NCBI RefSeq assembly: GCF_014201415.1
Contig: NZ_JACHEH010000005.1
Location: 62,001 to 126,000, forward strand
Origin: Chelatococcus composti
GTDB taxonomy: Bacteria > Pseudomonadota > Alphaproteobacteria > Rhizobiales > Beijerinckiaceae
DNA length: 64,000 nucleotides
Direction: 5' to 3'
Each line of letters starts with the position of its first letter. Positions within the stretch are counted from its first letter, which is position 1. This document shows positions 4,845 to 36,637 of the stretch, piece after piece. The notes under the pieces are model-generated. The model did not search any database. It was not told the DNA's origin and was given only the letters and a program-made list of their open reading frames with translations. The position numbers were made by a program, and so were the translations under genes.

Positions 4845-4868
4845 GGCGGCGCGGGCTCCCGCGCCGCC
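4845..4868 (-). other. Strong stem-loop after the binding-protein gene
   Basis: GGCGGCGCGGG (4845-4855) and CCCGCGCCGCC (4858-4868) form a perfect 11-bp stem with a two-base loop. The stem begins 8 bases past the binding-protein stop and precedes ridA. It is likely to stabilise the upstream message or attenuate transcription; see the window-wide finding on such stems. Confidence 0.65.
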
Positions 4869-4875
4869 GGAAACG

Positions 4876-5664: not shown

Positions 5665-5715
5665 CCTTGTTCTCCTCTGACTCCTGACGATTCTCCCCGG
5701 GCGCCAGGCGGGCGC

Positions 5716-7081: not shown

Positions 7082-7088
7082 GGGATCC

Positions 7089-7754: not shown

Positions 7755-7762
7755 GGCCGGTC

Positions 7763-9055
7763 TCAGCCGAAGAATGTCGGATAGACACTCGCCACCCGCC
7801 CGTCGGGGCCGAGGCCGAAGACGAGCCGCCAGCGGTCCAGGCAGGTGCAGGGATGCGAGATGCCGAAGGCGACGATGTCGCCCACCGCGAGGGCAGCATT
7901 GTCCGGCACCTGCAGGAAAGCGTGCTGGTCGTTGAGCTTGACGACGGCAGCACTCTCAAGACGGCCGAGTGGCACCCCGTCGCGAAAGGCCTCCAGCGGC
8001 ACGGGCATGCCCTGGTCGAAGGAAACGTCGCGCATCCCCATGCCGCAGATGGCGAGGCCCGGCTCCGGCCGCGACAGCACCTCCGCCCACAGTCGCAGAG
8101 CCGGGCGGAATGCCTCGGCCGCCTTGACGAACTTGCCGTCGATCGCGAAACCGCCGCGGGCATCCAGCCCTGCGAGCGCGCGGGCATAGACCCCGTGGTC
8201 ATGGAAGAATATGGCGCCGCTGCGCAGGACGAGGGAGGCGTTGCCGTCGTCCCGGACGCACGGACCGAGCATCGCCACCACTTCGTCGAAGTAGGACGAG
8301 CCGCCGGCCGTAGCGATGAGGTGACGGCCAGGTGCGGCCGCGCGCACGCGGGCAAAGGCCTCCCCCGCCAGCGCCAGCAGGGCACCGATCGCCTCCCGCG
8401 TCGCGGCCGCATCGGCGCTCGCCACAGCCCCTTCGTAGGCCGCGACGCCATCGAGAACCAGGCAATCGTCCGCCCCGGCGACGGCGGCGATGGTCGCCTC
8501 TACGGCCCCCAGATGCCGCGCTCCGGCGCGAGCGCCGCCCACCTCGACAAGAACAGGCAGGATGCGCCCGGCAAGGCGCGCCGTCTCCGCGAGCGCCGCG
8601 ACGCAGGCGGGCGAATCCGCGAATGCACGCAGCTCGACGCCCGGCCAGGCCTTGAGGAAGGCGCCGAGATGGCGGGCGCCGGAGCGCCCGCCGATTTCGT
8701 TGGCGAGCAGCAGACGGCTGATGCCCGCACGGGCCATGACGGACGCCTGCTGCACGTTGGCAACCGTCGCACCCCAGGCACCACGATTGACGAGCGCGCG
8801 GGCAAGCGCCGGCGCCATCGGCGTCTTGGCATGGGGAGCGATGAGGACGCCCTGCGAGCGGGCATAGGCGAACATCAGCTCGCAATTGCCGGCGAAAGCC
8901 TCCTCGTCCAGCGTCAACACCGGCAGCGGCATGTCCCCGGCCGCAGGCCGCCAGCCGAACGCCGCCACGGCATCGAGATCCACCGGCCCGCAATCGACGG
9001 GAATGCCGCGGAAGCGGCTGTCGATATCGCCCCACACGGCATCGGCGCGCTGCAT
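7763..9055 (-). CDS. PLP-dependent amino acid deaminase / D-threonine aldolase-like protein
   Basis: This is a fold-type III PLP enzyme of the alanine-racemase-like group that contains D-threonine aldolase, D-serine dehydratase (DSD1) and D-threo-3-hydroxyaspartate dehydratase (430 aa). The PLP lysine is expected in LIAPHAKTPMAPALAR. A C-terminal DSD1-like domain includes the metal-ligand-type segment LNDQHAFLQVPD, with a His and a nearby Cys (HPCTCLD). It is the first gene after the operator-bearing promoter, so it is probably the catabolic core of the operon. Co-transcribed RidA argues for a deaminating or dehydrating reaction that releases an enamine, rather than a simple aldol cleavage; that is inference. 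The D- or L- and beta-hydroxy specificity is unknown. Confidence 0.85.
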   Translation of the reverse strand: MQRADAVWGDIDSRFRGIPVDCGPVDLDAVAAFGWRPAAGDMPLPVLTLDEEAFAGNCELMFAYARSQGVLIAPHAKTPMAPALARALVNRGAWGATVANVQQASVMARAGISRLLLANEIGGRSGARHLGAFLKAWPGVELRAFADSPACVAALAETARLAGRILPVLVEVGGARAGARHLGAVEATIAAVAGADDCLVLDGVAAYEGAVASADAAATREAIGALLALAGEAFARVRAAAPGRHLIATAGGSSYFDEVVAMLGPCVRDDGNASLVLRSGAIFFHDHGVYARALAGLDARGGFAIDGKFVKAAEAFRPALRLWAEVLSRPEPGLAICGMGMRDVSFDQGMPVPLEAFRDGVPLGRLESAAVVKLNDQHAFLQVPDNAALAVGDIVAFGISHPCTCLDRWRLVFGLGPDGRVASVYPTFFG

Positions 9056-9076
9056 GTTACCCCGCTCGATTCGCGA

Positions 9077-9092
9077 ATGACAACGTTATCAT
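9077..9092. promoter_or_regulatory. LacI-type operator O1
   Basis: ATGACAACGTTATCAT is a near-perfect 16-bp palindrome with the central CG step typical of LacI-family sites. It overlaps the -10 element of the operon promoter. Its centre is 32 bp from the centre of O2, about three helical turns, so both sites face the same side of the DNA. Confidence 0.75.
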
Positions 9093-9115
9093 AGCCGATT
9101 TGGCGTGAATGACAA
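9088..9115 (-). promoter_or_regulatory. Sigma70-type promoter of the amino acid deaminase/transport operon
   Basis: On the minus strand, TTGTCA (-35, plus positions 9110-9115) and TATGAT (-10, 9088-9093) are separated by 16 bp. Transcription would begin near 9081, about 26 bases before the ATG at 9055. Both elements are embedded in the two LacI-type palindromes, so bound repressor would block polymerase directly. Confidence 0.7.
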
Positions 9116-9123
9116 CGTTGTCA
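9110..9123. promoter_or_regulatory. LacI-type operator O2
   Basis: TGACAACGTTGTCA is a perfect 14-bp palindrome and matches the general LacI-family operator form. It covers the -35 element. With O1 it brackets the promoter of the amino acid deaminase/transport operon. The most likely ligand is the LacI protein encoded at the far end of the same operon. Confidence 0.8.
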
Positions 9124-9175
9124 CTGCATGTTTGCGCGGCGCGCGCGGACGGCAGGACAGGCAGCGGGCAAAAAG

Positions 9176-9221
9176 GCCCTGAGCAGATCGTCGTCTGGGG
9201 GGTGAGACAGCCGCTCAGGGC
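9176..9221. repeat. Spaced inverted repeat GCCCTGAGC / GCTCAGGGC
   Basis: Perfect 9-bp arms (9176-9184 and 9213-9221) are separated by 28 bases. The feature sits in the 340-base gap between the LacI operators and the small ORF candidate. It could be an operator or the base of an RNA stem. No function can be assigned. Confidence 0.35.
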
Positions 9222-9257
9222 AGGGAAGGATTGGCGTCGGGCTGGAGGAACGCCAGC

Positions 9258-9338
9258 ATGAACACTTATCTGCAAAATCTACCGCGAACAATTATCAATA
9301 ACAAGCGTGGCCAACAGAATTCATTTACCTGCCAATAG
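9258..9338 (+). CDS. Candidate 26-residue small protein or leader ORF
   Basis: An ATG at 9258 opens 26 codons ending in TAG. It is preceded by GGAGG (9244-9248), nine bases before the start, and followed after two bases by a strong hairpin (9341-9369). The peptide is polar and Asn/Gln-rich (MNTYLQNLPRTIINNKRGQQ at the start). Its codons are AT-rich, unlike every neighbour. No promoter was found on the plus strand. It may equally be chance in an AT-rich patch, so I give it low confidence. Confidence 0.25.
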   Translation: MNTYLQNLPRTIINNKRGQQNSFTCQ

Positions 9339-9340
9339 TA

Positions 9341-9369
9341 ATGCGCCCCGGACATTTTCCGGGGCGCAT
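9341..9369 (-). terminator. Hairpin terminator at the end of the sugar transport operon
   Basis: ATGCGCCCCGG (9341-9351) and CCGGGGCGCAT (9359-9369) form a perfect 11-bp stem around an ACATTTT loop. It lies 26 bases beyond the stop of the last sugar permease gene. The T run after it is weak on the minus strand (TACTATT) and modest on the plus strand (GAATGTTTT), so it may act in both directions. Confidence 0.7.
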
Positions 9370-9395
9370 GAATGTTTTCCGGCGCGTCGATCACT

Positions 9396-10280
9396 TCAGG
9401 ACGTCAGTGCGCCGGCCGTCATGCCCTGGACCATGTACTTCTGCAGGAAGATGAAGGCGACGACGAGCGGAAGGCTGGCGAGGACCGAGAAGGCCATCAT
9501 CATGTTCCACTCGGTGACGAATTCGGCCATCAGGCTGTAGATGGCCATGGTCAGCACGCGGTTCTCCCAGGACTCGATCAGCACCACGGCGAAGAGGAAT
9601 TCGTTCCAGGCGAGCAGGAACGTGTAGAGGCCCGCGCCGACGAAGGCGGGATAGGACATCGGCACCAGCGTGCGGAAGATTGCGCCCAGGCGCGAGCAGC
9701 CGTCCACCATCGCCGCTTCCTCGATGTCGCGCGGGATGTTGAGGAAGTAGCTGCGCAGCATGAGGATGCAGAAGGGCAGCGTGAAGGTGAGATAGACGAT
9801 CACCAGCGCCGTGCGCGTATCGTAGAGCCCCAAGGTGATGAAGATGCGGAAATAGGGGATGCACAGGAGCACGAGCGGGAACATCTGCGTCGTGATCAGG
9901 AACATCAGCACCGCGCGCTGGCCGGCGAAGCGGAAGCGCGCCAGTGCATAGGCCGCCATCGCCCCGAGCACCAGCGACAGCGCTGTGACCACGAGCGAGA
10001 TGACCATCGTGTTGGCGAAGACGACGAGATAGCGCGGGGTCGTGAAGATCTTGGCGTAGGGCTCCCACGTGAAGATCTCCGGAATCCAGTCCGGAGGCAT
10101 CCGCGTCACTTCGAGGTTTGGGCGCACCGAAACGGTGGCCATCCAGGCGAGAGGGAAGAACACGATGACGATGGCGAGGACGAGCAGCACATAGGCCGCA
10201 AAGCGCGCCAGCCGCTCGCGGTTGCGCAGGCCGAGGTAGTAGGGAGAGACGACGGCCGGTTCGGTCGCGGGCCTCGGCAT
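9396..10280 (-). CDS. Carbohydrate ABC transporter permease (MalG-type)
   Basis: This is the second permease of a CUT1-family sugar importer (294 aa). It has an N-terminal helix (LARFAAYVLLVLAIVIVFFP) and the family's cytoplasmic coupling loop, here in IPRDIEEAAMVDGCSRLGAI, followed by LVPMSYPAFVGAGLYTF. It ends with the MalG-like C-terminus LQKYMVQGMTAGALTS. Its start lies two bases from the stop of the first permease gene, so translation is coupled. It ends the minus-strand operon and is followed by a hairpin terminator. Confidence 0.94.
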   Translation of the reverse strand: MPRPATEPAVVSPYYLGLRNRERLARFAAYVLLVLAIVIVFFPLAWMATVSVRPNLEVTRMPPDWIPEIFTWEPYAKIFTTPRYLVVFANTMVISLVVTALSLVLGAMAAYALARFRFAGQRAVLMFLITTQMFPLVLLCIPYFRIFITLGLYDTRTALVIVYLTFTLPFCILMLRSYFLNIPRDIEEAAMVDGCSRLGAIFRTLVPMSYPAFVGAGLYTFLLAWNEFLFAVVLIESWENRVLTMAIYSLMAEFVTEWNMMMAFSVLASLPLVVAFIFLQKYMVQGMTAGALTS

Positions 10281-10281
10281 G

Positions 10282-11172
10282 TCACTGCTCCTTGCTCAGG
10301 GTACGGCGCACATAGACGGCGCTGACGACGAAGAGAACGATGAACATCACCATCGCTTCCGCCGAGGCGTAGCCGAAGCGCAGCTTCTGGAACCCGTCGA
10401 AGTAGATCACCGTCGCCAGCACCTCGGAGGCGTGGGCGGGCCCGCCGCCAGTCATGACGAAGACCGGGTCGAAGGCGCGGAAGGTCCAGATGGAATCGAG
10501 CAGCACGATGGTGGTGATGACGCCGCGCAGTTGCGGCAGCGTGATGTGCCAGAACTTCTGCAGCCCCGAGGCCCCATCGATGTCCGCCGCCTCGTAGAGA
10601 TGCTTCGGGATGGCCTGCAGCCCGGCGAGCAGCATGACCATGAAGAATGGGAAGGCGCGCCAAACATTCATGGCCGTGACCGAGCCGAGCGCCGTCGAGG
10701 GATCGCCGAGCCAGGACGGGGCGAAGTTGATGTCGATGAGCCCGAGGCGGGCCAGCACGCCGTTGAGGACGCCGAAGGGTGCGAGCATCAGCACCCAGAT
10801 CATGCCTGCCACGGTGGGCGCCAGCAGCCAGGGCACGATCAACAGGCCCCGCGCCAGCGAGCGGAAGGTCTGGTTGAGCTGCATGTTAAGCAGCAGGGCG
10901 AGCCCGAGGCCGATGACGAGATGCAGCACGACGCTCGCCGCAGTGAACACAACCGTCTGGCCGAAGGCCTTCCAGAACAACGGGTCGTTGAGCAGCGCGA
11001 CATAGTTGCCAAGCCCGACCCACGTCTCCCGCTTAAGGTTACTGTCGTAGAAACTGAGGCGGATGACGTCGCCGAGCGGATAGATGAGCAGGGCGACGAG
11101 GATCAGCAGCGATGGCCACAGGAAGGAATAGGCCAGGATCTCGTCGCGAAAACGGTTTCGGAAGGTGGACAT
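10282..11172 (-). CDS. Carbohydrate ABC transporter permease (MalF/UgpA-type)
   Basis: This is the first permease of the sugar importer (296 aa, about six helices). It begins with a short cytosolic segment and the helix AYSFLWPSLLILVALLIYPL. The EAA coupling loop reads IPKHLYEAADIDGASGLQKF followed by WHITLPQLRG. It pairs with 9396-10280 and with the binding protein at 11285. A GC-rich stem-loop separates it from the binding-protein gene. No ATPase gene is present in this cluster, so a shared MsmK/UgpC-type ATPase encoded elsewhere is likely. Confidence 0.94.
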   Translation of the reverse strand: MSTFRNRFRDEILAYSFLWPSLLILVALLIYPLGDVIRLSFYDSNLKRETWVGLGNYVALLNDPLFWKAFGQTVVFTAASVVLHLVIGLGLALLLNMQLNQTFRSLARGLLIVPWLLAPTVAGMIWVLMLAPFGVLNGVLARLGLIDINFAPSWLGDPSTALGSVTAMNVWRAFPFFMVMLLAGLQAIPKHLYEAADIDGASGLQKFWHITLPQLRGVITTIVLLDSIWTFRAFDPVFVMTGGGPAHASEVLATVIYFDGFQKLRFGYASAEAMVMFIVLFVVSAVYVRRTLSKEQ

Positions 11173-25067: not shown

Positions 25068-25101
25068 GACCACGCTGCGCCGGTTATACCGGCGCGTGGT
25101 C
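25068..25101. terminator. Bidirectional terminator between convergent genes
   Basis: GACCACG (25068-25074) pairs with CGTGGTC (25095-25101), and inside it GCGCCGG pairs with CCGGCGC around TTATA. The loop contains the stop codon of the minus-strand phosphatase gene (25084-25086). It separates the lyase operon from the phosphatase operon. Confidence 0.65.
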
Positions 25102-25713
25102 AAGGCCGCGGCTCTTCAGGTCCGCGGGCGAGGAGACGTAGTTGAAGGTCAGAAGGCGTGCCGTGGCCGGCGACACCGTGCGGTTGACCGCAAAGACGGT
25201 GATGGCGCACGGTGAGAGCGGCGCGAGGCTCGCGGGCGCAAGCCCGACGAGAAGATCGCAGGCAGCGCGCACCACGCCCTCGTGCGTCACGATCACGGCA
25301 TCGTCCTGCGCGCGGGCGATGACATCCGAAATTGCCGCCCCGACACGGGCGCGAAAGGCTTCCCAGGTCTCGCCACCGGGCGGCGTGAGTCTGCCGAGGC
25401 GCCAATCGCGATAGGCGTAGCGGTCCTCGGCCTCGATGTCGCTGATGTAGCGACCCGTCCATTCGCCGAGATCCATCTCGCGCAGGCGCGGATCCGTCTC
25501 GGCTCCCGTGAAGCCGAGGATCTCGGCCGTGCGGCGCGCGCGGCCGAGGTCGGAGGTAACGACGAGGCCGGGCGGCGGCTCGGCCGCGAAGAAGGCGGCG
25601 GCCCGCCGCGCCTGCTCCTGGCCGCGTTCCGAAAGCGGGGCGTCCGCATGGCCCTGCAGGCGGCGCTCGGCGTTCCACACCGTCTCGCCGTGACGCACAA
25701 GGATCAGTCGCAT
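25084..25713 (-). CDS. Histidine phosphatase (phosphoglycerate-mutase-like)
   Basis: This is a branch-1 histidine phosphatase (209 aa). The catalytic RHG motif appears at once in LILVRHGETVWNAERRLQGH, and the second catalytic His is in AVIVTHEGVVRAACDLLV. Members are phosphoglycerate mutases or broad phosphomonoesterases; at this length and without the mutase extensions a phosphatase is more likely. It is the last gene of a minus-strand set that begins with a phosphate-ester-type ABC importer, so dephosphorylating the imported compound is a reasonable role. The substrate is not determinable from sequence. Confidence 0.88.
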   Translation of the reverse strand: MRLILVRHGETVWNAERRLQGHADAPLSERGQEQARRAAAFFAAEPPPGLVVTSDLGRARRTAEILGFTGAETDPRLREMDLGEWTGRYISDIEAEDRYAYRDWRLGRLTPPGGETWEAFRARVGAAISDVIARAQDDAVIVTHEGVVRAACDLLVGLAPASLAPLSPCAITVFAVNRTVSPATARLLTFNYVSSPADLKSRGLDHAPV

Positions 25714-25727
25714 GGATGATGTCCGGC

Positions 25728-26393
25728 TCAGGCGGAGACCGCCACGTCGATGAGGGCGGGCAGCTCGGCCATGTTGTCGAGGAGACGTTCGGCGCCGAGC
25801 TCGTGATGCGGCCGGTGGCTGTAGCCATAGGTCACGGCGAAGGCACGCACGCCGGCGGCGTGCGCAGCCTCCACGTCGTGATAATTGTCACCGACCATGA
25901 TCGCCGCCTCGGGCGGAACCGCGAGCTGCGAGAGGGCAGCAAGGAGCGGTGCCGGGTGCGGCTTGCGCTCCGGCAGGCTGTCGCCGCCAACGACCGCGCC
26001 GAAGAAACCGGTGAGGTCGAGCGCCGCAAGGATGTCCATGGTCGCCGCGTAGGGCTTGTTGGTGACGACCGCGAGCTTCAGCCCGCGCCGGCTGAGCTCC
26101 TCCAGCGCCTCGCGCACGCCGGGGTAGGGCACCGTGTGGCGGGAGGCGCCGGCCTCGTAGATGGCGAGGAAACGGCCGACATGGGCGGAGCGGCGCCCGA
26201 GATCTCCCCCCGTCGCGACGAGGGCCCGCTCGACGAGCTTCGCCGCCCCGTCACCAATCATCGACTTGACTTTTTCGAGGCTGACCTGCGGCAGCCCCTC
26301 CTCCGCAAGGAAGATGTTGAGGACATCCGTCAGGTCACGGACACTGTCGACGAGCGTGCCGTCGAGGTCGAAGAGGATGGCCTTGGGCGTCAT
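25728..26393 (-). CDS. gph: HAD-family phosphatase, phosphoglycolate-phosphatase-like
   Basis: This is a subfamily-IA HAD hydrolase (221 aa). Motif I is [12 protein letters not shown], with the nucleophile Asp. Motif II Thr and motif III Lys are in KLAVVTNKPYAATM and the later ERKPHPAPLL segment, and motif IV is MVGDNYHDVEAAHAAG. The overall pattern follows Gph (phosphoglycolate phosphatase). It lies 14 bases upstream of the histidine phosphatase gene and 132 bases downstream of the importer ATPase gene, with a strong hairpin in that gap. With the phosphoglycerate-type sensor upstream, a role in using imported phosphoglycolate or another small phosphate ester is plausible. Confidence 0.85.
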   Translation of the reverse strand: MTPKAILFDLDGTLVDSVRDLTDVLNIFLAEEGLPQVSLEKVKSMIGDGAAKLVERALVATGGDLGRRSAHVGRFLAIYEAGASRHTVPYPGVREALEELSRRGLKLAVVTNKPYAATMDILAALDLTGFFGAVVGGDSLPERKPHPAPLLAALSQLAVPPEAAIMVGDNYHDVEAAHAAGVRAFAVTYGYSHRPHHELGAERLLDNMAELPALIDVAVSA

Positions 26394-26448
26394 GAAAGGT
26401 TCTCGATGGGACAGGATCGGGATCGGGAAGGCTCCGGCCGGGGAGACT

Positions 26449-26474
26449 GCGCGGCGGCGGACTGGCCGCCGCGC
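26449..26474 (-). other. Intercistronic stem-loop between importer ATPase and phosphatase genes
   Basis: GCGCGGCGGC (26449-26458) and GCCGCCGCGC (26465-26474) form a perfect 10-bp stem with a six-base loop in the 132-base gap. There is no T run. It may separate transport from phosphatase expression without full termination. Confidence 0.55.
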
Positions 26475-26525
26475 TTCTGGTCCGTCGCGAGCCGCTTGCG
26501 AAGGCGCGGACCGCTCCGCATCGCT

Positions 26526-27623
26526 TCAGGATGCGAGCCAGACGGCCGCATCGAGGGAGAGGCCGACCTCCACGGCAGCACCCGGCTTGTGGATGGCCTC
26601 GCCCGACTGGAATGGCACATCGATGGAGACCTCCGTGGAGCCGAGCCTGACACCGTAGCGGACCGTCGAGCCCAGGAACTCGCTGTGCAGGACAGTGCCC
26701 GGCAGGGAAACGTCGCGCGCTCCCGTCGCCCCAAGCGAGGCGTGCTGCGGGCGGAAGACGAGCTTCGCGCCCTGCGGCACCTTTGCATCGGCCGGAATCG
26801 GCAGGCGCAGGCCACCGTCAATCTCGAACACGCGCTGGCCGCCCTCCTCGATGACGCGGCCGGGGACGATGTTGGCCGTGCCGAGGAAGCTCGCGACGAA
26901 CAGGTTGGCCGGCTTCTCATAGAGCTCCATGGGCGAACCGACCTGCTGCACGGCACCGTCGTTCATCACGGCGATGCGGTCGCAGATCGTGTTCGCCTCC
27001 TCCTGGTCGTGCGTGACGAAAATCGTCGTCAGGCCGAGCCGCTGCTGCAGGTCGCGCAGCTCGCGCCGCACCTGCACGCGCATCTTGGCATCGAGGTTGG
27101 AGAGCGGCTCGTCAAGCAGCAGCACCTTGGGCTCGATGGCGATGGTCCGCGCCACCGCGACGCGCTGCTGCTGGCCGCCCGAGAGCTGCGAGGGCCGCCG
27201 GTCGGCGAGGTGGGCGAGGCCGACGAGCTCGAGCGCGGAGGTCACGCGCCGTTCGATCTCGGCCTTCGGCACCTTGCGCTCCTCGAGGCCGAAGGCGACG
27301 TTGCGCCTCACGGTCATGTGCGGCCACAGGGCATAGGACTGGAAGACCATGCCGACGTCGCGCTTCCACGGCGGCAGATGGGACACGTCCTGCCCGCCGA
27401 CCAGCACCTCGCCGCTGTCGGCGCGGTTGAAACCGGCGATCAGGCGCAGCAGCGTGGTCTTGCCGCAGCCCGAGGGGCCGAGGAAGGCGAAGAACTCGCC
27501 GGGCTTGATGTGAAGGTTGATGCCCTTGAGCACGTGGTTGGTGCCGTAGGACAGATCGACGTTGCGGATTTCCACGTCGACGGCCTTGGTGTCGAGCGCG
27601 GAAGCGGAAACGGGCTGGTTCAT
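26526..27623 (-). CDS. ABC transporter ATP-binding protein (FbpC/AfuC/PotA type)
   Basis: This is an importer ATPase with a C-terminal TOBE regulatory domain (365 aa). Walker A is LGPSGCGKTTLLRL, the Q-loop is MVFQSYALWPH, the signature is [16 protein letters not shown], Walker B is VLLLDEPLSNLDAK and the switch His is FVTHDQEEA. The C-terminal ~120 residues form the TOBE part (LVFRPQHASLG, SEFLGSTVRYGVRL). The ATG at 27623 starts a normal N-terminus. It serves the fused permease at 27667 and the binding protein at 29475. The FbpABC-like family includes iron importers but also AfuABC, which carries hexose phosphates. Confidence 0.92.
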   Translation of the reverse strand: MNQPVSASALDTKAVDVEIRNVDLSYGTNHVLKGINLHIKPGEFFAFLGPSGCGKTTLLRLIAGFNRADSGEVLVGGQDVSHLPPWKRDVGMVFQSYALWPHMTVRRNVAFGLEERKVPKAEIERRVTSALELVGLAHLADRRPSQLSGGQQQRVAVARTIAIEPKVLLLDEPLSNLDAKMRVQVRRELRDLQQRLGLTTIFVTHDQEEANTICDRIAVMNDGAVQQVGSPMELYEKPANLFVASFLGTANIVPGRVIEEGGQRVFEIDGGLRLPIPADAKVPQGAKLVFRPQHASLGATGARDVSLPGTVLHSEFLGSTVRYGVRLGSTEVSIDVPFQSGEAIHKPGAAVEVGLSLDAAVWLAS

Positions 27624-27666
27624 TGACGTTGTCCCTTGGGGCCGGCTCGGTCGGGGCGGGGGCGCA

Positions 27667-29406
27667 TCAGCGCCCCGCCCCCTTGGCCTTCTGGCTCTTC
27701 TCGATGATGAGGTGGGAGGCGAAGGTGCACAGGGCGACAAGCAGCACGGCGATGACGCCGAGAGCCGCGCCCGGGCCACGCCCGGCTGCCGACTGCATGA
27801 AGACGTAGAGCCCGTAGGCGAGCGGCGCGTCCGCGTTCGACTGCACGAGCATCAGCGTCGCCGACAGTTCCACCGCCGCCGTGGCGAAGCTCGTCACGAA
27901 GCCGGCCAGGATGCCGCCGGCCATGAGCGGCAGCACGATGCGGCGCACGGTGCGCATCTTGGTGGCGCCGAGGTTTTCTGCCGCCTCCTCGAGGGAAACG
28001 GAGATCTGCTGCAGGGCGGCATAGCAGGCGCGCAGCGCATAGGGCAGCCGCCGGATGGCGAGCGCCAGCACGATGACGATCCACAGCGTCGCCAGCGGCG
28101 TGCCGTCCGGCAGCTGCACGCCGTAGAAGGTGCGCAGGTAGCCGATGCCGAGCACGACGCCCGGGATGGCGAGCGCCGCCGTCGCCGCCCAGTCGAGCCA
28201 CTGCCGGCCGACGAGCCTGGTGCGCAGCACGAGATAGGCGATGGCCGTGCCGAGCACCACGTCGACGAGGCCGGCGAGCGTGGCATAGATCAGCGTGTTC
28301 TTCACGTAGAGGAAGCTCTCGCCGAACACGCGCCCGTAATGCGCCAGCGTGAAGCCGTCCGGCAGCGGGCTGAAGGACCACACCGTGGCGAACGACAGGA
28401 GCAGCAGGCCGATGTGCGGCGCAAGCACGAGCAGGAGGATGAGAAGCACGGCCGCATAGGCCAGCACGCTCTCCCACGGCCGCATCCGCCGCTTGGCGAG
28501 GCCGCCGCCGCCGCGCTGCACGGTGGCGTAATCCTTGCCGCGCATGGCGCGCGACGACACCCACATCGCCAGGATCGACATCGCGATGAGCACGACCGCG
28601 ATGACATACCCCATGGGATCGGCAATGCCGATGGAGGTGACGCGCAGATAGGCCTGCGGCGCCAGCATGTCCTTGACGTTGAGGAGCAGCGGCGTCGCCA
28701 GGTCATCGAAGACCTTGACGAAGACAAGCGACGCGCCGGCGACATAGCCCGGCATGGCAAGCGGGAAGACGATGCGGCGGAACAGGCGGAAGCCCGAGCA
28801 GCCGAGGTTCTGTGCCGCCTCCTCCATCGCCCGGTCGATGTTGCGCAGCGCCGCCGACAGGTTGATGAGGATGAAGGGGAAATAGTGCACCGCCTGCACG
28901 AAGATGACCCCGTTCAGCCCCTCCATGAAGGGGATACGGAAGCCGAACCAGTCGTTGAGCAGCAGGTTGACGGTGCCGTTGCGGCCGAAGAGCAGGAGCA
29001 TCGCCACGGCGCCGACGAAGGGCGGCATGATGAGCGGCAGGAAGCCCAGCGTCTGGATGATCATCGCGCCGCGGAACTCGAAGCGCGTCGTGATGTAGGC
29101 GAGCGGCAGGGCGAAGACAGACGCCACGACCACCGACATCGCCGAGACATAGACCGAGTTCCAGAAGGAACGGATGAAGAGGTCCGTCCGCGCGAAATCG
29201 AGAAAATTGACGAGCGTGAAGGTGTTCGTGCCCTTTTCGGTAAAGGCGACGTAGATCACCGTCGCCACTGGAATGATGAGGAAAAGGGCGAGAAAGACGG
29301 CAATACCGAGGGCAAGGGCAAGCTGCCCCGGCGTCGCGGACGTCATGAAATGCCGGAAAGGCCTGGACGGCGCATGCGCTCGCCCGGCGGTCGTGGCGTC
29401 AGCCAT
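27667..29406 (-). CDS. Fused two-domain ABC permease (FbpB/AfuB type)
   Basis: This single polypeptide (579 aa) contains two permease modules in tandem, each with about six helices, as is usual for FbpB-like importers. Coupling loops are visible in both halves: IDRAMEEAAQNLGCSGFRLF in the first and ISVSLEEAAENLGATKMRTV in the second. Both are followed by similar segments (VFPLAMPGYVAGASLV; VLPLMAGGILAGFVTSF). It lies between the ATPase gene (43-base gap) and the binding-protein gene (68-base gap containing a palindrome). Similar fused permeases import ferric ion, 2-aminoethylphosphonate or sugar phosphates. Confidence 0.93.
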   Translation of the reverse strand: MADATTAGRAHAPSRPFRHFMTSATPGQLALALGIAVFLALFLIIPVATVIYVAFTEKGTNTFTLVNFLDFARTDLFIRSFWNSVYVSAMSVVVASVFALPLAYITTRFEFRGAMIIQTLGFLPLIMPPFVGAVAMLLLFGRNGTVNLLLNDWFGFRIPFMEGLNGVIFVQAVHYFPFILINLSAALRNIDRAMEEAAQNLGCSGFRLFRRIVFPLAMPGYVAGASLVFVKVFDDLATPLLLNVKDMLAPQAYLRVTSIGIADPMGYVIAVVLIAMSILAMWVSSRAMRGKDYATVQRGGGGLAKRRMRPWESVLAYAAVLLILLLVLAPHIGLLLLSFATVWSFSPLPDGFTLAHYGRVFGESFLYVKNTLIYATLAGLVDVVLGTAIAYLVLRTRLVGRQWLDWAATAALAIPGVVLGIGYLRTFYGVQLPDGTPLATLWIVIVLALAIRRLPYALRACYAALQQISVSLEEAAENLGATKMRTVRRIVLPLMAGGILAGFVTSFATAAVELSATLMLVQSNADAPLAYGLYVFMQSAAGRGPGAALGVIAVLLVALCTFASHLIIEKSQKAKGAGR

Positions 29407-29437
29407 GGACGCTCCCTCGAATCAACATGGAAAGGTG

Positions 29438-29461
29438 CGGACGGCCCCGCGGGGCCGTCCG
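29438..29461 (-). other. 24-bp perfect palindrome after the binding-protein gene
   Basis: CGGACGGCCCCG (29438-29449) is the exact reverse complement of CGGGGCCGTCCG (29450-29461). In RNA this folds as a stem of about 10-11 bp. It starts 13 bases past the stop of the binding-protein gene, in the same relative position as stems after other binding-protein genes here. Confidence 0.65.
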
Positions 29462-29474
29462 GTCGAGAAGGGGA

Positions 29475-30797
29475 TCAGCGCAGGCGCTTCAGCGCCTCCT
29501 CGGCCTTCGCCTGGGCCTTGGCGTAGTTTTCCTTGGCGAAGGCGGCCCACTGCTGCTCGAGCTCGGCCTGGCGGGCGCCCTTCTGCTTGCCGCCGGTGAA
29601 GGCGCCGGTGATCTCGGGCGAGGAGGCCTGCTCCTCCGTGACCGGCATGGCGGCGATGAGATCCCTCGCTTCCTTGATGAGGGCGCGGGCCTCGGCGTCA
29701 TCCTTCTTGGCGAGCGCCGCCTCGGCGTCGTGGATGGCCTTCGTGGCCGCCTTCAGGGCGTCGAGCTGGAAGGTGATGGTCTGGTCGTAGAGCACGTCGA
29801 CGACGTTGGAGCGCTTCTCCGACACGTTCACGTCGAACTTCACCCGTGCGCCGAGCGACGGATCCTTGAAGGGGTTCGGGTAGTCCGCCGGCGCCTTCTC
29901 GTACACCGCCGGGTTGATCGGCAGACGGCGGATGCTCGGCTCGAGCAGAACCTCCTGGCCCGCAGGCGAGACGAGGAAGTCGACGAAGGCCTGGGCGCCT
30001 TCCTTGTTCGGCGCATTCGCGACCACGGCAACGTTCGCCGGCACGATGGTCGTCACCGTCGGATAGACGAACTTCACCGGGAAGCCTGAAGCCTGCGAGG
30101 AAAAGGCGAAGAAGTCGATGACGATGCCGAAGCCGACCTGACCGGAGTTGACGGCCTCCGGCACGCCGAAGGAGCGCTCGGTGATCTCGCGGAAGTTGCC
30201 GGATATCTCCTTGATCGTGCGCCAGCCCTGGTCCCAGCCTTCACCCTGCAGGATGGTCTCGATGGTCAGGTGCGTCGTGCCGGAGCGCGACGGCGCCGCC
30301 ATGGAGACATGGTCGAAGTAGACCGGCTTGGCGAGGTCCTGCCATTCCTTCGGCTCGGGCAGATCATTGGCCTTGGCATAGCGCTCGTTCCACATGATGC
30401 CGTAGCCCGAGGCAGCGAACCCGGAGTAGAAGCCGTCCGGATCGTTGATCGGATAGGAGCCGATCTTGTCAGGAATGCCCTCGGCCTTCGGCTTGTAGGG
30501 CTCGAGCAGGCCCTTGCCCTTCAGCACCTCGAACGCGTCGGGAGCGGAAGCCCAGAACAGGTCCACCTGGTTGTTGGCCTTCGTCTCCTCGAGATATTTC
30601 ACGCCGGCATTGGTGTTGCGGTTCTGCACGTCGAGCGTGAGACCCGGATGAGCCTTCTCGAAGGCCTGTTTGATCGGGTCCGTCACATCCTTGGAGAAGG
30701 AGGTCACGACCGTGACCTTGCCGGTCTGAGCGAAGGCAACACCCGTGAACAGGGCAGCACCGACGAGCGCCGCGGCGGCGGCGTAATGGCGTGGCAT
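29475..30797 (-). CDS. Iron/phosphate-ester-type ABC substrate-binding protein (PgtC paralogue)
   Basis: This is a periplasmic receptor of the Fe3+/AfuA/PgtC group (440 aa) with a signal peptide (AAAAALVGAALFTGVAFA). It shares with the sensor protein at 34249 a string of motifs: LFWASAPDAFEVLKGKGLL, YPINDPDGFYSGFAASGYG, APSRSGTTHLTIETILQGEG, RSFGV, and RRLPINPAVY. The two are clearly paralogues within one cluster. The C-terminal ~80 residues are Lys/Ala/Glu-rich and helical. A GGGAGGAA ribosome site precedes the ATG. A sigma54-type promoter lies 60-74 bases upstream. The ligand is predicted to be a small phosphorylated compound by analogy with PgtC and AfuA; iron is the main alternative. Confidence 0.9.
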   Translation of the reverse strand: MPRHYAAAAALVGAALFTGVAFAQTGKVTVVTSFSKDVTDPIKQAFEKAHPGLTLDVQNRNTNAGVKYLEETKANNQVDLFWASAPDAFEVLKGKGLLEPYKPKAEGIPDKIGSYPINDPDGFYSGFAASGYGIMWNERYAKANDLPEPKEWQDLAKPVYFDHVSMAAPSRSGTTHLTIETILQGEGWDQGWRTIKEISGNFREITERSFGVPEAVNSGQVGFGIVIDFFAFSSQASGFPVKFVYPTVTTIVPANVAVVANAPNKEGAQAFVDFLVSPAGQEVLLEPSIRRLPINPAVYEKAPADYPNPFKDPSLGARVKFDVNVSEKRSNVVDVLYDQTITFQLDALKAATKAIHDAEAALAKKDDAEARALIKEARDLIAAMPVTEEQASSPEITGAFTGGKQKGARQAELEQQWAAFAKENYAKAQAKAEEALKRLR

Positions 30798-30856
30798 CTT
30801 GTTCCTCCCATAAAGGGCTGTTCTGCTGGCCGCCAGTGGCGGCTCGCTGCCGCTGA

Positions 30857-30871
30857 GCAACAAGCGGGCCA
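30857..30871 (-). promoter_or_regulatory. Sigma54 (-24/-12) promoter of the ABC importer operon
   Basis: On the minus strand the sequence reads TGGCCC-GCTTG-TTGC, one mismatch from the TGGCAC-N5-TTGC consensus and with the exact GG-N10-GC spacing. Transcription should start near 30845, about 48 bases before the binding-protein ATG at 30797. The gene immediately upstream (30987-32348) encodes a GAFTGA-containing sigma54 activator, so regulator and promoter fit each other. Confidence 0.75.
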
Positions 30872-30894
30872 GAATGCGCAAGGACCGGCCTGCC

Positions 30895-30985
30895 AAAGGT
30901 TACGCTTGAAACGGTCACCCTTCCGGCCGGCGATCTCGAGTAATCGATGTAACGGCGGCGCCAGCCGATGGGTCAGAAGGGTAAC
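30895..30985. promoter_or_regulatory. Candidate upstream activator sites (AARGGTKAC elements)
   Basis: AAAGGTTAC (30895-30903) faces GTCACCCTT (30914-30922) as an imperfect inverted repeat. A further direct copy, AAGGGTAAC, lies at 30977-30985. They sit about 50-140 bases upstream of the predicted sigma54 start site, a normal position for enhancer-like sites bound by an NtrC-family activator. Confidence 0.45.
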
Positions 30986-30986
30986 A

Positions 30987-32344
<1,358 letters not shown>

Positions 32345-32348
<4 letters not shown>

Positions 32349-34252
32349 GCCCGCCCTGCTGCGGCAAGATCGACCACGAATGTCGTGCCGTCCGGTCCTG
32401 TTTCGGCCAGCGAGAGGGCGCCGCCGAAGTCCTTGACGATGTTGTAGGACATCGACAGCCCGAGGCCGAGCCCCAGCCCGACCGGCTTGGTCGTGAAGAA
32501 CGGATCGAAGATCGCCTCGCGGGCCGCCGCGTCTATTCCTGCGCCGGTGTCACTGACCCTGAGCAGGACACGCCCGTCCTTTGCCTGCACGCTGATCTCG
32601 ATGCGCCGCTCCTCGCGCCCGCGCAGCGCATCGAGTGCATTGGAAACGAGGTTGACGATGACCTGCTCGAGGCGGATCTCCTCCGCCTCGACCACAACCG
32701 ACCCCTCGGGAAACGCGAGCCGCACCTCCACCTGTTCCTCGTCGATGCGCTGCGCGAAGAGGCTCAGCGCGCCCTCGACAACGGCCTTCAGGTCCACCGG
32801 CTCGAGGGTTGACGCCGGGCGGCGGGCGAAGCGCTTGAGATGGCCGATGAGCTCCGCCATGCGGGCCGTGAGCCCCTGGATGCGCTCGAGGCTCGCCCGC
32901 GCCTCCTCTGAACGACCGCGCTCCATCAGGATGGCGCTGTTGTGCGCGTGCGAGCGGATGGCGGCAAGCGGCTGGTTCAGCTCGTGGCTGATGCCCGCCG
33001 CCATCTGGCCGAGGGCAGCGAGCTTGGCGGCCTGGACGAGATCGTCACGCGTCTGCCGGAACACGGCGAGCGCCCTGGCGAGGTCGCCAAGCTCGTCGTC
33101 GGTCGGTGGCGGCAGCACGGGCATGGTGGGTCCGCTGGCGATCGTCGTCGCGGCAAGCGTCAGGCCTTCCAGCCGCGCAACAAGGCTGCGGCGCACATAG
33201 AACCAGCCGACCACGATCGCAATGGCGAGAGAGGTGATGGCTATGGCGAGCAGGAGATTGCGCCCGACGACAATGGCCTCGGCCGAGCGCTCCGCCGCGC
33301 GCCGCGCGATCGCCTCCGTGCGGCTCACCTCTTGCGAGATGAGCGCGCCGAGCCGCGTGACGAGGCGCCGGTTCTCGGCCAGCAGCGCCTGCGCCTCGGC
33401 AATGGCCGCAAGCTCCTGCCGCTTGAGAGCCGCGAGCCCGGTTTTCGCGTCTGAGAGAGCGAGGAGGCGCGCCACGATCTGGCTCACCGTGACAGTATCG
33501 GTCCAGTTAGCCAGCGCCTTCGTCTCGATGTCGAGCTGGTCGGCGATCTCGCCGATGAAGTGGCTCGTCGCGTCGAGATCCTCCACCGTCGGTACGGTCG
33601 CGAGCCGCCCGAGGAGGCCGACCACGAGATTGGCGTGGGCGTTGATGGTGAGCAGGGCCTCGCTCTTGCGGCTCTCCTCGCGCAGGGTGCGGCGCCCCGC
33701 CTGCGCGGCGTCACCAGGCCCCACCCTGTCGATGGCCGATTCCATGTTGAAACGGGCGTCCTCGATCAGGGGCTCGACCTCCTCGATGAGGTCCGCCTGC
33801 AGCCAGCGCAACTCCTCGCTCATCGCCCGCGCCCGTTCGCCAAGCGGGAAGCGCCGCTCCGCCACGCGGTCGATGGCCTCCAGATTTGCCTCGATGCCCT
33901 CGCTCACGAGGATGAGCTCCGGCGACAGCGAATCCTCGCTGCTGCGCGTGTCGAGGACGGCGCGCAGCACGCCGAGCCGCTCGACGAGCGTCTTGCGGAT
34001 GGCGTCGTAGGTTTCGCGCCGCTCGGCCACGGCGAGGTCCGGGGTGCTGGCGATGACGTTCGCCCCCGCCTCGGCGAGGCGGGCCGAGAAGGCGAGCGCC
34101 GGCAGATGGTCGGTGGCGACCGCTTCCAGCTCCTCGCTCAGCCGGGCATAGGACAGCCACCCGACGATGCAGGCGCCGACGGCAAGCCCGCCGACCCCGA
34201 GGAAGGCGAGCAGAAGGCGCCCGCCGATTCCCAGTCGTCTCCTTCGGATCAT
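32345..34252 (-). CDS. Membrane sensor histidine kinase (PgtB-like)
   Basis: This is a 635-residue HisKA-type kinase. Transmembrane helices lie at about 12-34 and 331-353 and enclose an unusually long, almost wholly helical periplasmic domain (about 35-330). A HAMP-like linker follows (about 354-406), then the H-box AAGISHELNQPLAAIR with phospho-acceptor H423. The ATPase domain has N-box NLVSNALDAL, G1 VSDTGAGID and G2 GLGLGLSMSYNIVKDFGG. Its start overlaps the periplasmic protein gene (34249) by 4 bases and its stop overlaps the regulator gene by 4 bases. The large periplasmic domain probably docks that binding protein. Confidence 0.92.
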
Positions 34253-35607
34253 CGCGGCAAGGCCCCCGCAGTCGTGGCGCGTGCCTCGAGCCGGGCGGTG
34301 ACGGCGGCAAGCGCACGGGCTGCCTGCTGCATGTTGTCGTCGACGGCTGCCTTGATGCGCGCCTCGAGCTGCGCCTGCGGCTCCGGGACGGGGACGCCGC
34401 GGCGCACGCGTTCCAGCTTCCGCCAGCGCTCCAGGTCCATGGCCTCGCCCGCGTCCACGGGCGGGCGCGTCAGGGCGGCCCGCGCCTCGCCGACGAGGCG
34501 CGCCAGCTCCGCATCGCCGCCGCGCACGAGCGCCGTCTCCGCCGCCCTCACCATCCGCCACAGCCGCACAAGCTCGGCACGGCGGAAGGTGATCATCTCG
34601 TCGAAGATGATGTTGACGAGTTCGTAGCGGGCGGCGGAAAGGCGCGGATCGTACAGGCCGTGCGCAAAGAGCCCCTCGCGCTGGAAGGGGCTGTTCCCTT
34701 CGGCCGAGCCAGGCGCGTAGGCCGACGGGGAGATGGGCAGCCGGGCGATGGCCGGATCAAGCAGGATCGCCTGGCCCTCGGGCGACAGCACCAGATCGAC
34801 GAAACGCTCGGCGCCCTCACGGTTGTCCGCACCCGCCATCACCGCGATGCTCGCCGGCACGAACAGCGTCTCCTCCGGCAGGGCGAAGGCCGTCGAGCCC
34901 CTGGGCAGGCCATCCTGGTTCACGAGGAAGTCGATGGACGGCCCGATGCCGAAGCGCCCGCGCGCGACCCCGGCCGAGACGCCGAAGCTGCGGGCCGTGA
35001 CGGTGGCAAGGTTGCCGCCGATCTCGGACCACAGGGCCCAGCCCCGCTCCCAGCCGTAGACCTGCAGGATGGCCTCGACCATGAGGTGCATCGTGCCGGA
35101 GCGCGACGGCGCGCTGATGCCGATGTGCCCGGCATAGATCGGCGCCGCAAGGTCCGACCAGCCGCGCGGCACCGGCAGCCCCCTCTCGGCGAGGTAGTCG
35201 GGATTGTAGACGAAACCGTAGCCCGACAGTGCAAAGCCGAGATAGGCGCCGTCCGGATCGTTGACCGGATAGCCGGCGATGCGCTCCGGCGCGCCGGTGG
35301 GGCGGGGATCGAGGTGCGCCAGAAGGCCGGCGGCCTTCAGGATCTCGAAGGCGTCGGGTGCCGACGCCCACAGTACGTCGGCCTTCTGGTGGCCGCCCAT
35401 GATGCCGGCCACCGCCGCGGTTGTCTTGCGATGCACGAACTCGATCGTGCTGCCGGGATGGCGTGCCTCGAAGGCACGCCTGTAGGGCTCGACGAACTGC
35501 GGGGGAAAGGAGGTAAGGACCCGCACGGGCCGCGCGTCCGGCCCGGCCGCTGCCGGGAGGATGAGGTGAAAGACGACGGCAAGGCTGGCGGCGAGGACGC
35601 GGAACAT
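34249..35607 (-). CDS. Periplasmic sensor binding protein (PgtC-like)
   Basis: This is a signal-peptide-bearing binding protein (452 aa; leader RVLAASLAVVFHLILPAAAG) of the PgtC/AfuA group. It is a paralogue of the transport receptor at 29475, sharing VLWASAPDAFEILKAAGLL, YPVNDPDGAYLGFALSGYG, APSRSGTMHLMVEAILQVYG, RSFGV and ARLPISPSAY. Unlike other binding-protein genes here it has no stem-loop after it; its last bases overlap the kinase start (ATGA), so it is made in step with the kinase. That coupling argues for a sensory, not transport, role, as in the PgtC-PgtB-PgtA phosphoglycerate system. Ligand identity is inferred by analogy. Confidence 0.88.
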   Translation of the reverse strand: MFRVLAASLAVVFHLILPAAAGPDARPVRVLTSFPPQFVEPYRRAFEARHPGSTIEFVHRKTTAAVAGIMGGHQKADVLWASAPDAFEILKAAGLLAHLDPRPTGAPERIAGYPVNDPDGAYLGFALSGYGFVYNPDYLAERGLPVPRGWSDLAAPIYAGHIGISAPSRSGTMHLMVEAILQVYGWERGWALWSEIGGNLATVTARSFGVSAGVARGRFGIGPSIDFLVNQDGLPRGSTAFALPEETLFVPASIAVMAGADNREGAERFVDLVLSPEGQAILLDPAIARLPISPSAYAPGSAEGNSPFQREGLFAHGLYDPRLSAARYELVNIIFDEMITFRRAELVRLWRMVRAAETALVRGGDAELARLVGEARAALTRPPVDAGEAMDLERWRKLERVRRGVPVPEPQAQLEARIKAAVDDNMQQAARALAAVTARLEARATTAGALPR

Positions 35608-35689: not shown

Positions 35690-36637
35690 TCACCGGCCGA
35701 GGCGCAGGCCTGCACCGGCCTCCAGTGCCCGCCTGTACACGAGGGCCGCGACGGCGAGATCAGCGAGGGCAAAGCCGCGGAAGAGGAACATCGACCGCCC
35801 GCCCGACCGGGGGCGCCCGCCCTCCCCTGCGCACAGCATGGCGAGATCCGCGTCATAGCCGGGTTCCGGCCGCGCCGAGAGGATCGGGGCATAGTCGCCG
35901 GCCTGGCTGCGGTCGTCGATGGCGAGCGTGTCGAACGCGGCAAGGCTCTCGCCGATCCAGCTGCGGCCGACATCGACGGCAGCGACGAAGGCGCCCGGCT
36001 TCAGGCGGCGGGCGTCGAGAAACGGCCGGAAGCCCGGCCGCATCGGCACGCTGGTGACGACGATGTCGCAGGCGGCGAGAAGGCCCTCGCAATCCTCGGT
36101 GGCGACGGCGTCGAGGCCCATGGCCCGCGCCTTCGCGACGAGGCGCTCGGCCGAGGTGCGCGTGCGGCTGAAGGCCTGCACCGCGACGAGCGACGGCAGG
36201 GCGGCGCGGAACGCGGCAAGATGATTCCCGGCCTGCAAGCCGCAGCCGACGAAGCCGATGGTACGGCTGCCGGGCGAGACGAGATGCATGGCGGCCGCGG
36301 CCGACATGGCCGCGGTGCGCACGCCGGTGAAGGCGTTTCCGTCCATCACGGCGAGCAAACGGCCCGTGGCGAAGTCGTTCAGCGACAGGCAGGCATCGAT
36401 GCCGTGCTCGGTGAGGCCGTACCACTTGTTGACGGCGAAGCCGAGCGCCGGCGAGGCGGCGCACATCGACTGGAAGGCATGGCCCGGGCGCACGTCGAGC
36501 GACAGCTTGGGCCGCGACAGGGCCGGCTCGGCCCGGTGGGCGGCAAAGGCCGCGGCAACCGCCTCGCGCACCGCCGCAACGTCGCCCGTCAGGGCCGTGA
36601 CCGTCACCTCGTCGAGATAAAGAACCGTGCGTTCCAT
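35690..36637 (-). CDS. Ornithine cyclodeaminase / mu-crystallin family protein
   Basis: This is an NAD(P)-dependent enzyme of the ornithine cyclodeaminase/mu-crystallin family (315 aa), which contains cyclodeaminases, ketimine (delta1-pyrroline-2-carboxylate) reductases and EutC. The substrate Lys is in GFAVNKWYG, the Rossmann glycine motif is FVGCGLQAGNHL, and the catalytic Asp region is ALADLAVAALVYRRALE. It follows the flavoprotein subunit gene by 4 bases in an operon with an opine-oxidase-type complex. A reductase or deaminase acting on the imine or amino acid product of that complex is likely. Whether it is a true cyclodeaminase cannot be told from sequence. Confidence 0.87.
   Translation of the reverse strand: MERTVLYLDEVTVTALTGDVAAVREAVAAAFAAHRAEPALSRPKLSLDVRPGHAFQSMCAASPALGFAVNKWYGLTEHGIDACLSLNDFATGRLLAVMDGNAFTGVRTAAMSAAAAMHLVSPGSRTIGFVGCGLQAGNHLAAFRAALPSLVAVQAFSRTRTSAERLVAKARAMGLDAVATEDCEGLLAACDIVVTSVPMRPGFRPFLDARRLKPGAFVAAVDVGRSWIGESLAAFDTLAIDDRSQAGDYAPILSARPEPGYDADLAMLCAGEGGRPRSGGRSMFLFRGFALADLAVAALVYRRALEAGAGLRLGR

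What the first reader, a model, noticed from the sequence alone, without database searches (positions are those of the whole stretch)
25084..35607. Self-contained phosphorylated-compound uptake system: PgtCBA-like sensor driving an AfuABC-type importer plus two phosphatases
The genes for a periplasmic binding protein, long-periplasmic-domain kinase and sigma54 activator overlap by 4 bases each, exactly the PgtC-PgtB-PgtA layout known for phosphoglycerate uptake in enterobacteria. The known system induces the PgtP carrier. Here the target appears to be an ABC importer of the FbpABC/AfuABC type, whose receptor is a paralogue of the sensor protein, followed by a Gph-like HAD phosphatase and a histidine phosphatase. 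Together they would sense, import and dephosphorylate a small phosphate ester such as phosphoglycerate or phosphoglycolate. I know of no described system joining a Pgt-type sensor to an ABC importer and dedicated phosphatases.
Basis: partly seen in the sequence, partly recalled or inferred. Interest (0 to 1): 0.85.

Follow-up and report, generated by a model that had tools for sequence, protein, structure and literature searches.

The report
Sensor-controlled organophosphate importer in Chelatococcus
A bacterium of the Chelatococcus kind carries a self-contained gene set that appears to detect a small phosphorylated compound outside the cell, switch on its own dedicated importer for it and then remove the phosphate; the sensor is a cousin of the Salmonella phosphoglycerate sensor but works a different kind of pump.

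Summary
Eight minus-strand genes lie at 35607-25084: receptor SBP1, kinase, sigma54-type regulator (4-base overlaps), receptor SBP2, fused permease, ATPase, Gph-type HAD phosphatase, histidine phosphatase. SBP1, SBP2 and enterobacterial PgtC form one clade (99/100) apart from AfuA/P5PA, so the importer's receptor is a PgtC-family protein, not an AfuA. The kinase's sensor region matches PgtB's. Phosphatases follow the importer in 16 of 31 regulator-linked loci against 1 of 53 others. Thirteen of 13 PgtA of true or near Pgt loci lack GAFTGA, and their pump promoters lack sigma54 sites, so this is not 'exactly' the Pgt system. The ligand is inferred, not shown: a small organophosphate very likely; phosphoglycerate/PEP or phosphoglycolate most likely. 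A new variant of a known kind, found in many Alphaproteobacteria; I found no description in the open-licence library searched.

The parts
34249..35607 (-). SBP1, periplasmic receptor of the sensor (PgtC family, 452 aa, with a C-terminal helical extension)
32345..34252 (-). sensor histidine kinase, PgtB-like periplasmic sensor region, HAMP, predicted phospho-acceptor His423
30987..32348 (-). response regulator, receiver + sigma54-activating AAA+ (GAFTGA intact) + Fis-type HTH
30967..30988 (-). enhancer-like motif GATGTTACC-N4-TGACCCATC, predicted binding site of the regulator
30856..30871 (-). sigma54 -24/-12 promoter TGGCCCG-N4-TTGCT, 74 bases before the SBP2 start
29475..30797 (-). SBP2, periplasmic receptor of the importer (PgtC family, 440 aa)
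27667..29406 (-). ABC importer permease, two BPD_transp_1 stretches in one chain (579 aa)
26526..27623 (-). ABC importer ATPase with TOBE domain (365 aa)
25728..26393 (-). HAD phosphatase, phosphoglycolate-phosphatase family; a second member over the cut-off lies elsewhere in the genome
25084..25713 (-). histidine phosphatase, branch 1 (nearest models CobC and GpmB, below every named cut-off)

Best explanation
It is a ligand-induced import module for a small organophosphate. SBP1 binds the compound in the periplasm and signals through the PgtB-like kinase to the adjacent regulator (inferred from homology with PgtC-PgtB-PgtA). The phosphorylated regulator binds the GTTACC/TGACCC sites just behind its own gene and opens the sigma54 promoter at 30856-30871 (sites shown in the sequence, action inferred), which drives SBP2-permease-ATPase and, across short gaps, the two phosphatases. 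SBP2, a paralogue of SBP1, delivers the same or a very similar ligand to the ABC pump; the Gph-type and histidine phosphatases free the phosphate inside. Most likely ligands are 2-/3-phosphoglycerate and phosphoenolpyruvate, next phosphoglycolate.
For: SBP1, SBP2 and PgtC form one clade, 99/100 support, against AfuA, P5PA and 15 other receptors. A profile of the N-terminal (sensor plus HAMP) region of enteric PgtB finds this kinase at 1.8e-21 among 8158 ORFs of the fetched loci, and below 1e-3 finds only kinases of these loci. In one Pgt locus used as yardstick, L170, PgtP, PgtB and PgtA pass their NCBIfam cut-offs. sigma54 promoter in 31 of 33 loci with the regulator, 0 of 65 without; 7 independent pairs on the SBP2 tree agree (6.9 of 7 on average over 200 pairings, none opposed, median p 0.0156). 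Enhancer motif at 15 or more of 18 positions in 27 of 33 against 0 of 65; one site in this genome at up to 1 mismatch, none for the reversed pattern. rpoN is present. Phosphatase downstream in 16 of 31 regulator-linked loci against 1 of 53 (one search gave 16 of 32 and 1 of 52). Pocket: T62 and G173 start helices and S209 lies two residues before one in the SBP2 model, at positions aligned with the phosphate-holding helix starts of AfuA/P5PA (passages of PMC4546632 and PMC8427247). R208, S209, D228, S172 and T174 are invariant in 41 of 41 SBP1/SBP2/PgtC rows and R171, H176 in 39 of 41; AfuA and P5PA have Ser at both Arg positions. The best six Foldseek PDB hits of the SBP2 model are sugar-phosphate- and PLP-binding proteins. 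Pyruvate kinase, a PEP enzyme, stands beside the system in Pseudochrobactrum and beside PgtCBA with a PgtP-like gene in 2 of 13 Pgt-type loci.
Against: No ligand was tested. The pocket differs between SBP1, SBP2 and PgtC at several positions (229, 230, 254, 255), so ligands may differ. About half of the regulated loci lack phosphatases (15 of 31), and pyruvate kinase is rare (1 of 84 alphaproteobacterial loci). The sigma54 threshold (33) was set after seeing the scores, and the enhancer motif was read from the same loci it is counted in. Two genomes that have the regulator, G003 and G005, hold no site at up to 1 mismatch, and G001 holds a third site elsewhere. Fe3+-binding proteins share the fold. 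The order of SBP1, SBP2 and PgtC inside their clade is unresolved (27/0). Four of the 12 PgtC rows come from loci whose PgtB is below the PgtB cut-off.
Confidence: 0.68

Rival explanations
1. Same regulatory machine, but the ligand is a hexose phosphate or glycerol phosphate, as in AfuABC or Ugp.
For: Best structural matches of SBP2 are G6P-binding proteins; importer architecture resembles AfuABC.
Against: AfuA's H205 and E229 are kept in none of the 41 SBP1/SBP2/PgtC rows; D206 is not kept in the multiple alignment, though the pairwise alignment sets it against the invariant D228. Two extra arginines suit a more acidic ligand; the receptors lie outside the AfuA/P5PA clade.
Confidence: 0.14
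2. The ligand is a phosphonate, such as 2-aminoethylphosphonate or phosphonopyruvate; the phosphatases are unrelated salvage enzymes.
For: The nearest NCBIfam models of SBP2, permease and ATPase are PhnS2, PhnU2 and PhnT2; PhnD-like genes lie near 8 of 84 importer loci, 4 of them titled Bosea (one more, L122, which was not among the 84, passes TIGR01098); kinases of the same kin stand beside PhnE (L183, over its cut-off).
Against: Scores are far below those families' cut-offs (127 of 393, 168 of 593, 392 of 458 bits); none of the gene names of phosphonate breakdown appears beside the genes in the annotated loci (their gene table is incomplete), and the class V aminotransferase near the Aminobacter locus resembles SufS, not PhnW; the HAD scores 52 bits with phosphonatase (cut-off 220) but 209.5 with phosphoglycolate phosphatase (cut-off 180).
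Confidence: 0.1
3. An Fe3+ importer of the FbpABC type, as the public annotation of the permease ('iron ABC transporter permease') suggests.
For: Same fold; FutA and FbpA proteins follow the organophosphate binders in the Foldseek list.
Against: At the likely place of the paired iron tyrosines (recalled for FbpA, placed by eye) SBP2 has F229-F230 in 16 of 16 rows and SBP1 F-L in 13 of 13; a PgtC-family sensor and phosphatases have no evident role in iron uptake. Fur sites were not looked for.
Confidence: 0.04
4. The sensor and the importer are merely neighbours; the regulator acts elsewhere.
For: Most importer loci in the survey lack the regulator (65 of 98), and in Aminobacter niigataensis 11 kb separate the two.
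Against: Promoter and enhancer follow the presence of the regulator; the promoter is there also in A. niigataensis (score 41.0), and the enhancer motif has no second site in the genome at up to 1 mismatch.
Confidence: 0.04

Closest known systems
PgtC-PgtB-PgtA / PgtP of Salmonella and other Enterobacterales
   Same: Receptor-kinase-regulator order; receptor in the same clade with most of the pocket signature and a C-terminal extension; sensor region homologous.
   Different: Target is an ABC importer with a paralogous receptor instead of the PgtP antiporter; regulator keeps GAFTGA and the promoter is sigma54-type; phosphatases may be attached. No PgtP match in 108 loci L039-L146 at 1e-5.
AfuABC hexose-phosphate importer and P5PAB
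   Same: ABC importer; receptor fold; helix-start phosphate site.
   Different: Receptor belongs to another clade; sugar-ring residues H205 and E229 absent; regulated by its own sensor.
HptA-HptS-HptR / UhpT of Staphylococcus (recalled; search listing only)
   Same: Extracytoplasmic binding protein as sensor of an organophosphate.
   Different: Drives a UhpT antiporter; no ABC importer or phosphatase is part of it (recalled).
TorT-TorS
   Same: Kinase N-terminal region matches TorS models below their cut-offs; a periplasmic binding protein presents the ligand (recalled).
   Different: Different receptor family and ligand (recalled).

Membership tests
Pgt sensor (PgtC-PgtB-PgtA) | Receptor of the PgtC clade | tested here: met
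   41 SBP1/SBP2/PgtC rows form one side of a branch, 99/100
Pgt sensor (PgtC-PgtB-PgtA) | PgtB-type sensor region | tested here: met
   PgtB N-terminal profile, E 1.8e-21 for this kinase; the reverse search also hits PgtB, 9.7e-13 at best
Pgt sensor (PgtC-PgtB-PgtA) | NCBIfam equivalog cut-offs for PgtB (1000) and PgtA (650) | tested here: not met
   238 and 320.6 bits; a true pair scores 1156 and 740
Pgt sensor (PgtC-PgtB-PgtA) | PgtP carrier as target | tested here: not met
   No PgtP match in loci L039-L146 and none over the TIGR00881 cut-off in the genome
Pgt sensor (PgtC-PgtB-PgtA) | Response to phosphoglycerate or PEP | not testable with these tools
   Needs binding and reporter assays
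AfuABC | Receptor with sugar-phosphate residues H205, D206, E229 | tested here: not met
   H205 and E229 absent in 41 of 41 rows; D206 absent in the multiple alignment, ambiguous in the pairwise one
AfuABC | Two-domain permease in one chain and TOBE ATPase (recalled for AfuB and AfuC) | tested here: met
FbpABC (Fe3+) | Paired tyrosine iron ligands | tested here: not met
   F229-F230 in 16 of 16 SBP2 rows; the tyrosine pair and its place are recalled
Gph phosphoglycolate phosphatase | TIGR01449 cut-off | tested here: met
   209.5 of 180 bits
PhnSTUV2 (2-AEP) | NCBIfam cut-offs of PhnS2, PhnU2, PhnT2 | tested here: not met
sigma54-dependent two-component system | GAFTGA, -24/-12 promoter, upstream sites, rpoN in the genome | tested here: met
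   action on the promoter itself not tested

The most novel reading that the evidence does not exclude
A second branch of the PgtC family serves as ABC-import receptors, and the sensor arose from (or with) that importer receptor by duplication: a sigma54-driven, substrate-induced ABC uptake route for phosphorylated C2-C3 acids in Alphaproteobacteria, of which the enteric PgtP system is a derived form that swapped the pump and lost GAFTGA.
Probability: 0.4. Interest if true: 0.75.

Novelty: new variant of a known kind. Interest (0 to 1): 0.62.

Why it matters
It would give these Alphaproteobacteria a dedicated, inducible, ATP-driven uptake route for small phosphate esters, where the sensor-controlled routes I know of (UhpT, PgtP) use antiporters. 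It would correct the standing annotation 'iron ABC transporter permease' for a large family (at least 539 stretches encoding a relative of SBP2 in one genome scan). The paired paralogous receptors, one for sensing and one for import, make a clean system for asking how a binding protein becomes a sensor.

Tried and rejected
AfuA-type hexose phosphate and Fe3+ readings were tested on residues and on a tree and rejected as leading readings. A first receptor tree held five rows read on the wrong strand; it was redone and only the second is used. Search for pgt genes by position in two E. coli chromosomes found none in the stretches read; PgtB loci came from a family search instead. Conserved-neighbour clustering was cluttered by antisense frames and is not used for counts. 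A sigma54 look-alike at about 30878-30895, seen by eye, has the wrong spacing; the match used is 30856-30871. Rows dropped before counts: L062, L068 and L071 (duplicates or same genus) and three upstream stretches under 250 bases; L045, counted there among the 33, has its regulator about 4 kb downstream on the other strand, so by the stricter rule the count would be 31 of 32 and 0 of 66. One search also left out L045, L051, L054, L055 and SBP2 under 380 aa. Searches left out L045, L054, L055, L062, L068, L071 and loci with under 6.5 kb downstream; wrongly counted L051 (an unrelated-looking pair downstream) as regulated, corrected. The other regulated locus without the promoter, Paracoccus L064, also lacks GAFTGA. 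In one search one direction of the sensor comparison gave an empty table; it was rerun. Papers: passages of PMC4546632, PMC8427247, PMC11077982, PMC10715179, PMC5996543 and PMC10197778 were seen; all others only as search listings. Searches for a described Pgt-sensor/ABC-importer system; none seen in the listings of that open-licence library.

Full report
What is there. Eight open minus-strand genes run from 35607 to 25084: SBP1 (34249-35607), histidine kinase (32345-34252), response regulator (30987-32348), SBP2 (29475-30797), fused permease (27667-29406), ATPase (26526-27623), HAD phosphatase (25728-26393) and histidine phosphatase (25084-25713). Gaps inside SBP2-to-phosphatase are 68, 43, 132 and 14 bases, fit for one operon. 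The genome is Chelatococcus-like by inference: a genome of the same genus (G002) has a contig of the same length as one of C. sambhunathii DSM 18167, and plasmid pTAD1 of C. daeguensis carries the same eight genes.

Distribution. The eight-gene order recurs in other Chelatococcus, Microvirga and Azospirillum ramasamyi. A. brasilense has two unrelated genes between the regulator and SBP2. Aminobacter, Ensifer and Pseudochrobactrum have a histidine phosphatase but no Gph match. Bosea, Ancylobacter, a Paracoccus plasmid, G003 (same genus) and G024 (same family) have the six-gene core without phosphatase. Of the 80 genome loci, 19 have the regulator upstream of SBP2; the rest (Reyranella, Rhodoplanes, many Bosea and others, some on short contigs) show the importer alone. 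The scan kept the best 80 of 539 or more relatives, so these counts lean towards sequences like the window's.

The receptors are of the PgtC family. Four further PgtC rows (L179, L180, L182, L187) come from loci with PgtB below the cut-off. A tree of 58 receptors puts SBP1, SBP2 and PgtC on one side of a branch (99/100) against AfuA, P5PA and 15 others; the order inside is unresolved. Shared residues absent from AfuA and P5PA: R208 and D228 in 41 of 41, R171 and H176 in 39 of 41 (by the pairwise alignment, D228 falls on AfuA D206). All 41 carry 129-168 residues after R291, mostly helical in the two models. In the SBP2 model (mean pLDDT 90.3) helices begin at T62, G173 and G211, close to where AfuA and P5PA hold the phosphate at helix starts (passages of PMC4546632 and PMC8427247). 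Foldseek ranks G6P-, F6P- and PLP-binding structures 1-6, then iron-binding ones. The phosphate site thus seems kept and AfuA's sugar site not, and two extra arginines suit a second acidic group on the ligand; this last step is inference.

The kinase and regulator. A profile of the enteric PgtB N-terminal region matches this kinase at 1.8e-21 in a set of 8158 ORFs; below 1e-3 only kinases of these loci were found, and an ordinary kinase in the set (L170, 2447-3772) was not. The regulator differs from PgtA in a telling way: the sigma54-contact motif GAFTGA (GAFPGA in L045 allowed) is present in 33 of 36 regulators of the alphaproteobacterial loci, duplicates included (missing in L064, L046 and the partial L051), and missing in 13 of 13 PgtA-type regulators. 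Correspondingly no good sigma54 site lies within 400 bases upstream of the pump gene in those 13 loci, best score 27.5 against the threshold of 33; one of them, L180, has a 15-of-18 match to the enhancer motif described next.

The regulatory link. Upstream of SBP2, 31 of 33 loci with the regulator have a -24/-12 promoter scoring 33 or more, 53-86 bases before the start; 0 of 65 loci without it do; 61 of 5050 mononucleotide shuffles do. The threshold was chosen. On a tree of 96 SBP2, seven independent pairs that differ in the regulator differ in the promoter the same way (6.9 of 7 on average over 200 pairings, none the other way, median p 0.0156, range 0.0156-0.0312). A motif GATGTTACC-N4-TGACCCATC, often twice, lies about 40-130 bases above the promoter; 15 or more of 18 positions match in 27 of 33 regulated loci and in 0 of 65 others. 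In the window's genome its core occurs once at up to one mismatch, at 30967-30988, overlapping the regulator's stop codon; the reversed pattern occurs in none of six genomes. G001, G002 and G024 have sites at the same promoter, G001 one more elsewhere; G003 and G005 have none at that stringency. The regulator therefore seems to serve this operon alone. rpoN is present.

Metabolic context. Gph-type or histidine phosphatases follow the importer in 16 of 31 regulator-linked loci and 1 of 53 others with enough sequence; related strains make these counts less independent than they look, four or so lineages by my reading (Chelatococcus/Microvirga, Azospirillum, Telmatospirillum, Rhizobiaceae and kin). 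The genome has a second PGP-family protein over the cut-off (182 bits), so the local one is extra. Pyruvate kinase stands 52 bases behind the histidine phosphatase in Pseudochrobactrum and beside PgtCBA with a PgtP-like gene in L180 and L182, 2 of 13 Pgt-type loci. In Bosea and kin an unrelated HAD-IIA hydrolase or a PhnD-like gene lies near some importers. PgtP is known to carry 2-/3-phosphoglycerate and PEP, and PgtC-PgtB-PgtA to induce it with 3-phosphoglycerate (PMC10715179, PMC11077982, passages).

Judgement. That this is a sensor-controlled importer for a small organophosphate I hold likely; that the ligand is phosphoglycerate/PEP is the best single guess (about even), phosphoglycolate second. 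It is of the Pgt sensor kind by receptor and sensor region, but fails the PgtB/PgtA cut-offs and the PgtP criterion, so it should be filed as a Pgt-like variant. I saw no paper that describes it in the listings.

Noticed in passing
L179 (G486), 310-10334: PgtC-PgtB-PgtA (PgtB 703 bits, below the cut-off) stands divergent from an ABC importer (343-aa receptor, ATPase, fused permease, second ATPase) instead of PgtP; the receptor there is not of the PgtC clade. A second pairing of a Pgt sensor with an ABC importer.
   Followed up: partly
L181, L183, L184, L185, L186, L188, L189: Kinase and regulator related to the window's (regulator 46-49%) stand beside a phosphonate-type ABC transporter (in L183 PhnE over its cut-off) and, in several, a protein of about 400 residues without NCBIfam match in L183; 5 of 7 loci are of one genus (g166). 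Five of the six regulators examined read GSFTSA in place of GAFTGA (L186 not examined).
   Followed up: partly
L104, L111, L120, L125 (two of them titled Bosea): A HAD-IIA hydrolase (TIGR01459 in L111) lies upstream of the importer, and PhnD-like genes lie near several such importers.
   Followed up: partly
L060, 17677-21018: In Azospirillum brasilense an aspartate-alanine antiporter and an aspartate transaminase/decarboxylase sit between the regulator and SBP2, on the other strand.
   Followed up: no
L134, 16359-17621: Three Ancylobacter importer loci and Telmatospirillum share a 3-oxo-tetronate kinase (over its cut-off in L134) and genes that cluster with annotated TRAP permeases.
   Followed up: partly
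window about 29475-29927 and 34249-34743: The 41 PgtC-family receptors aligned carry a C-terminal extension of about 130-170 residues of unknown role, in sensors and importers alike.
   Followed up: partly
L170-L180, L182, L187: All 13 PgtA-type regulators examined lack GAFTGA; the Pgt system of these genomes seems to have left sigma54 control.
   Followed up: partly
window 35690-36637: An ornithine-cyclodeaminase-like gene lies 82 bases upstream of SBP1 on the same strand; it is kept in G001 but not in G002 or plasmid pTAD1, so it is not part of the module.
   Followed up: partly
L132: A Solirubrobacteraceae-labelled MAG contig carries a typical alphaproteobacterial SBP2; probably contamination of the bin.
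   Followed up: no
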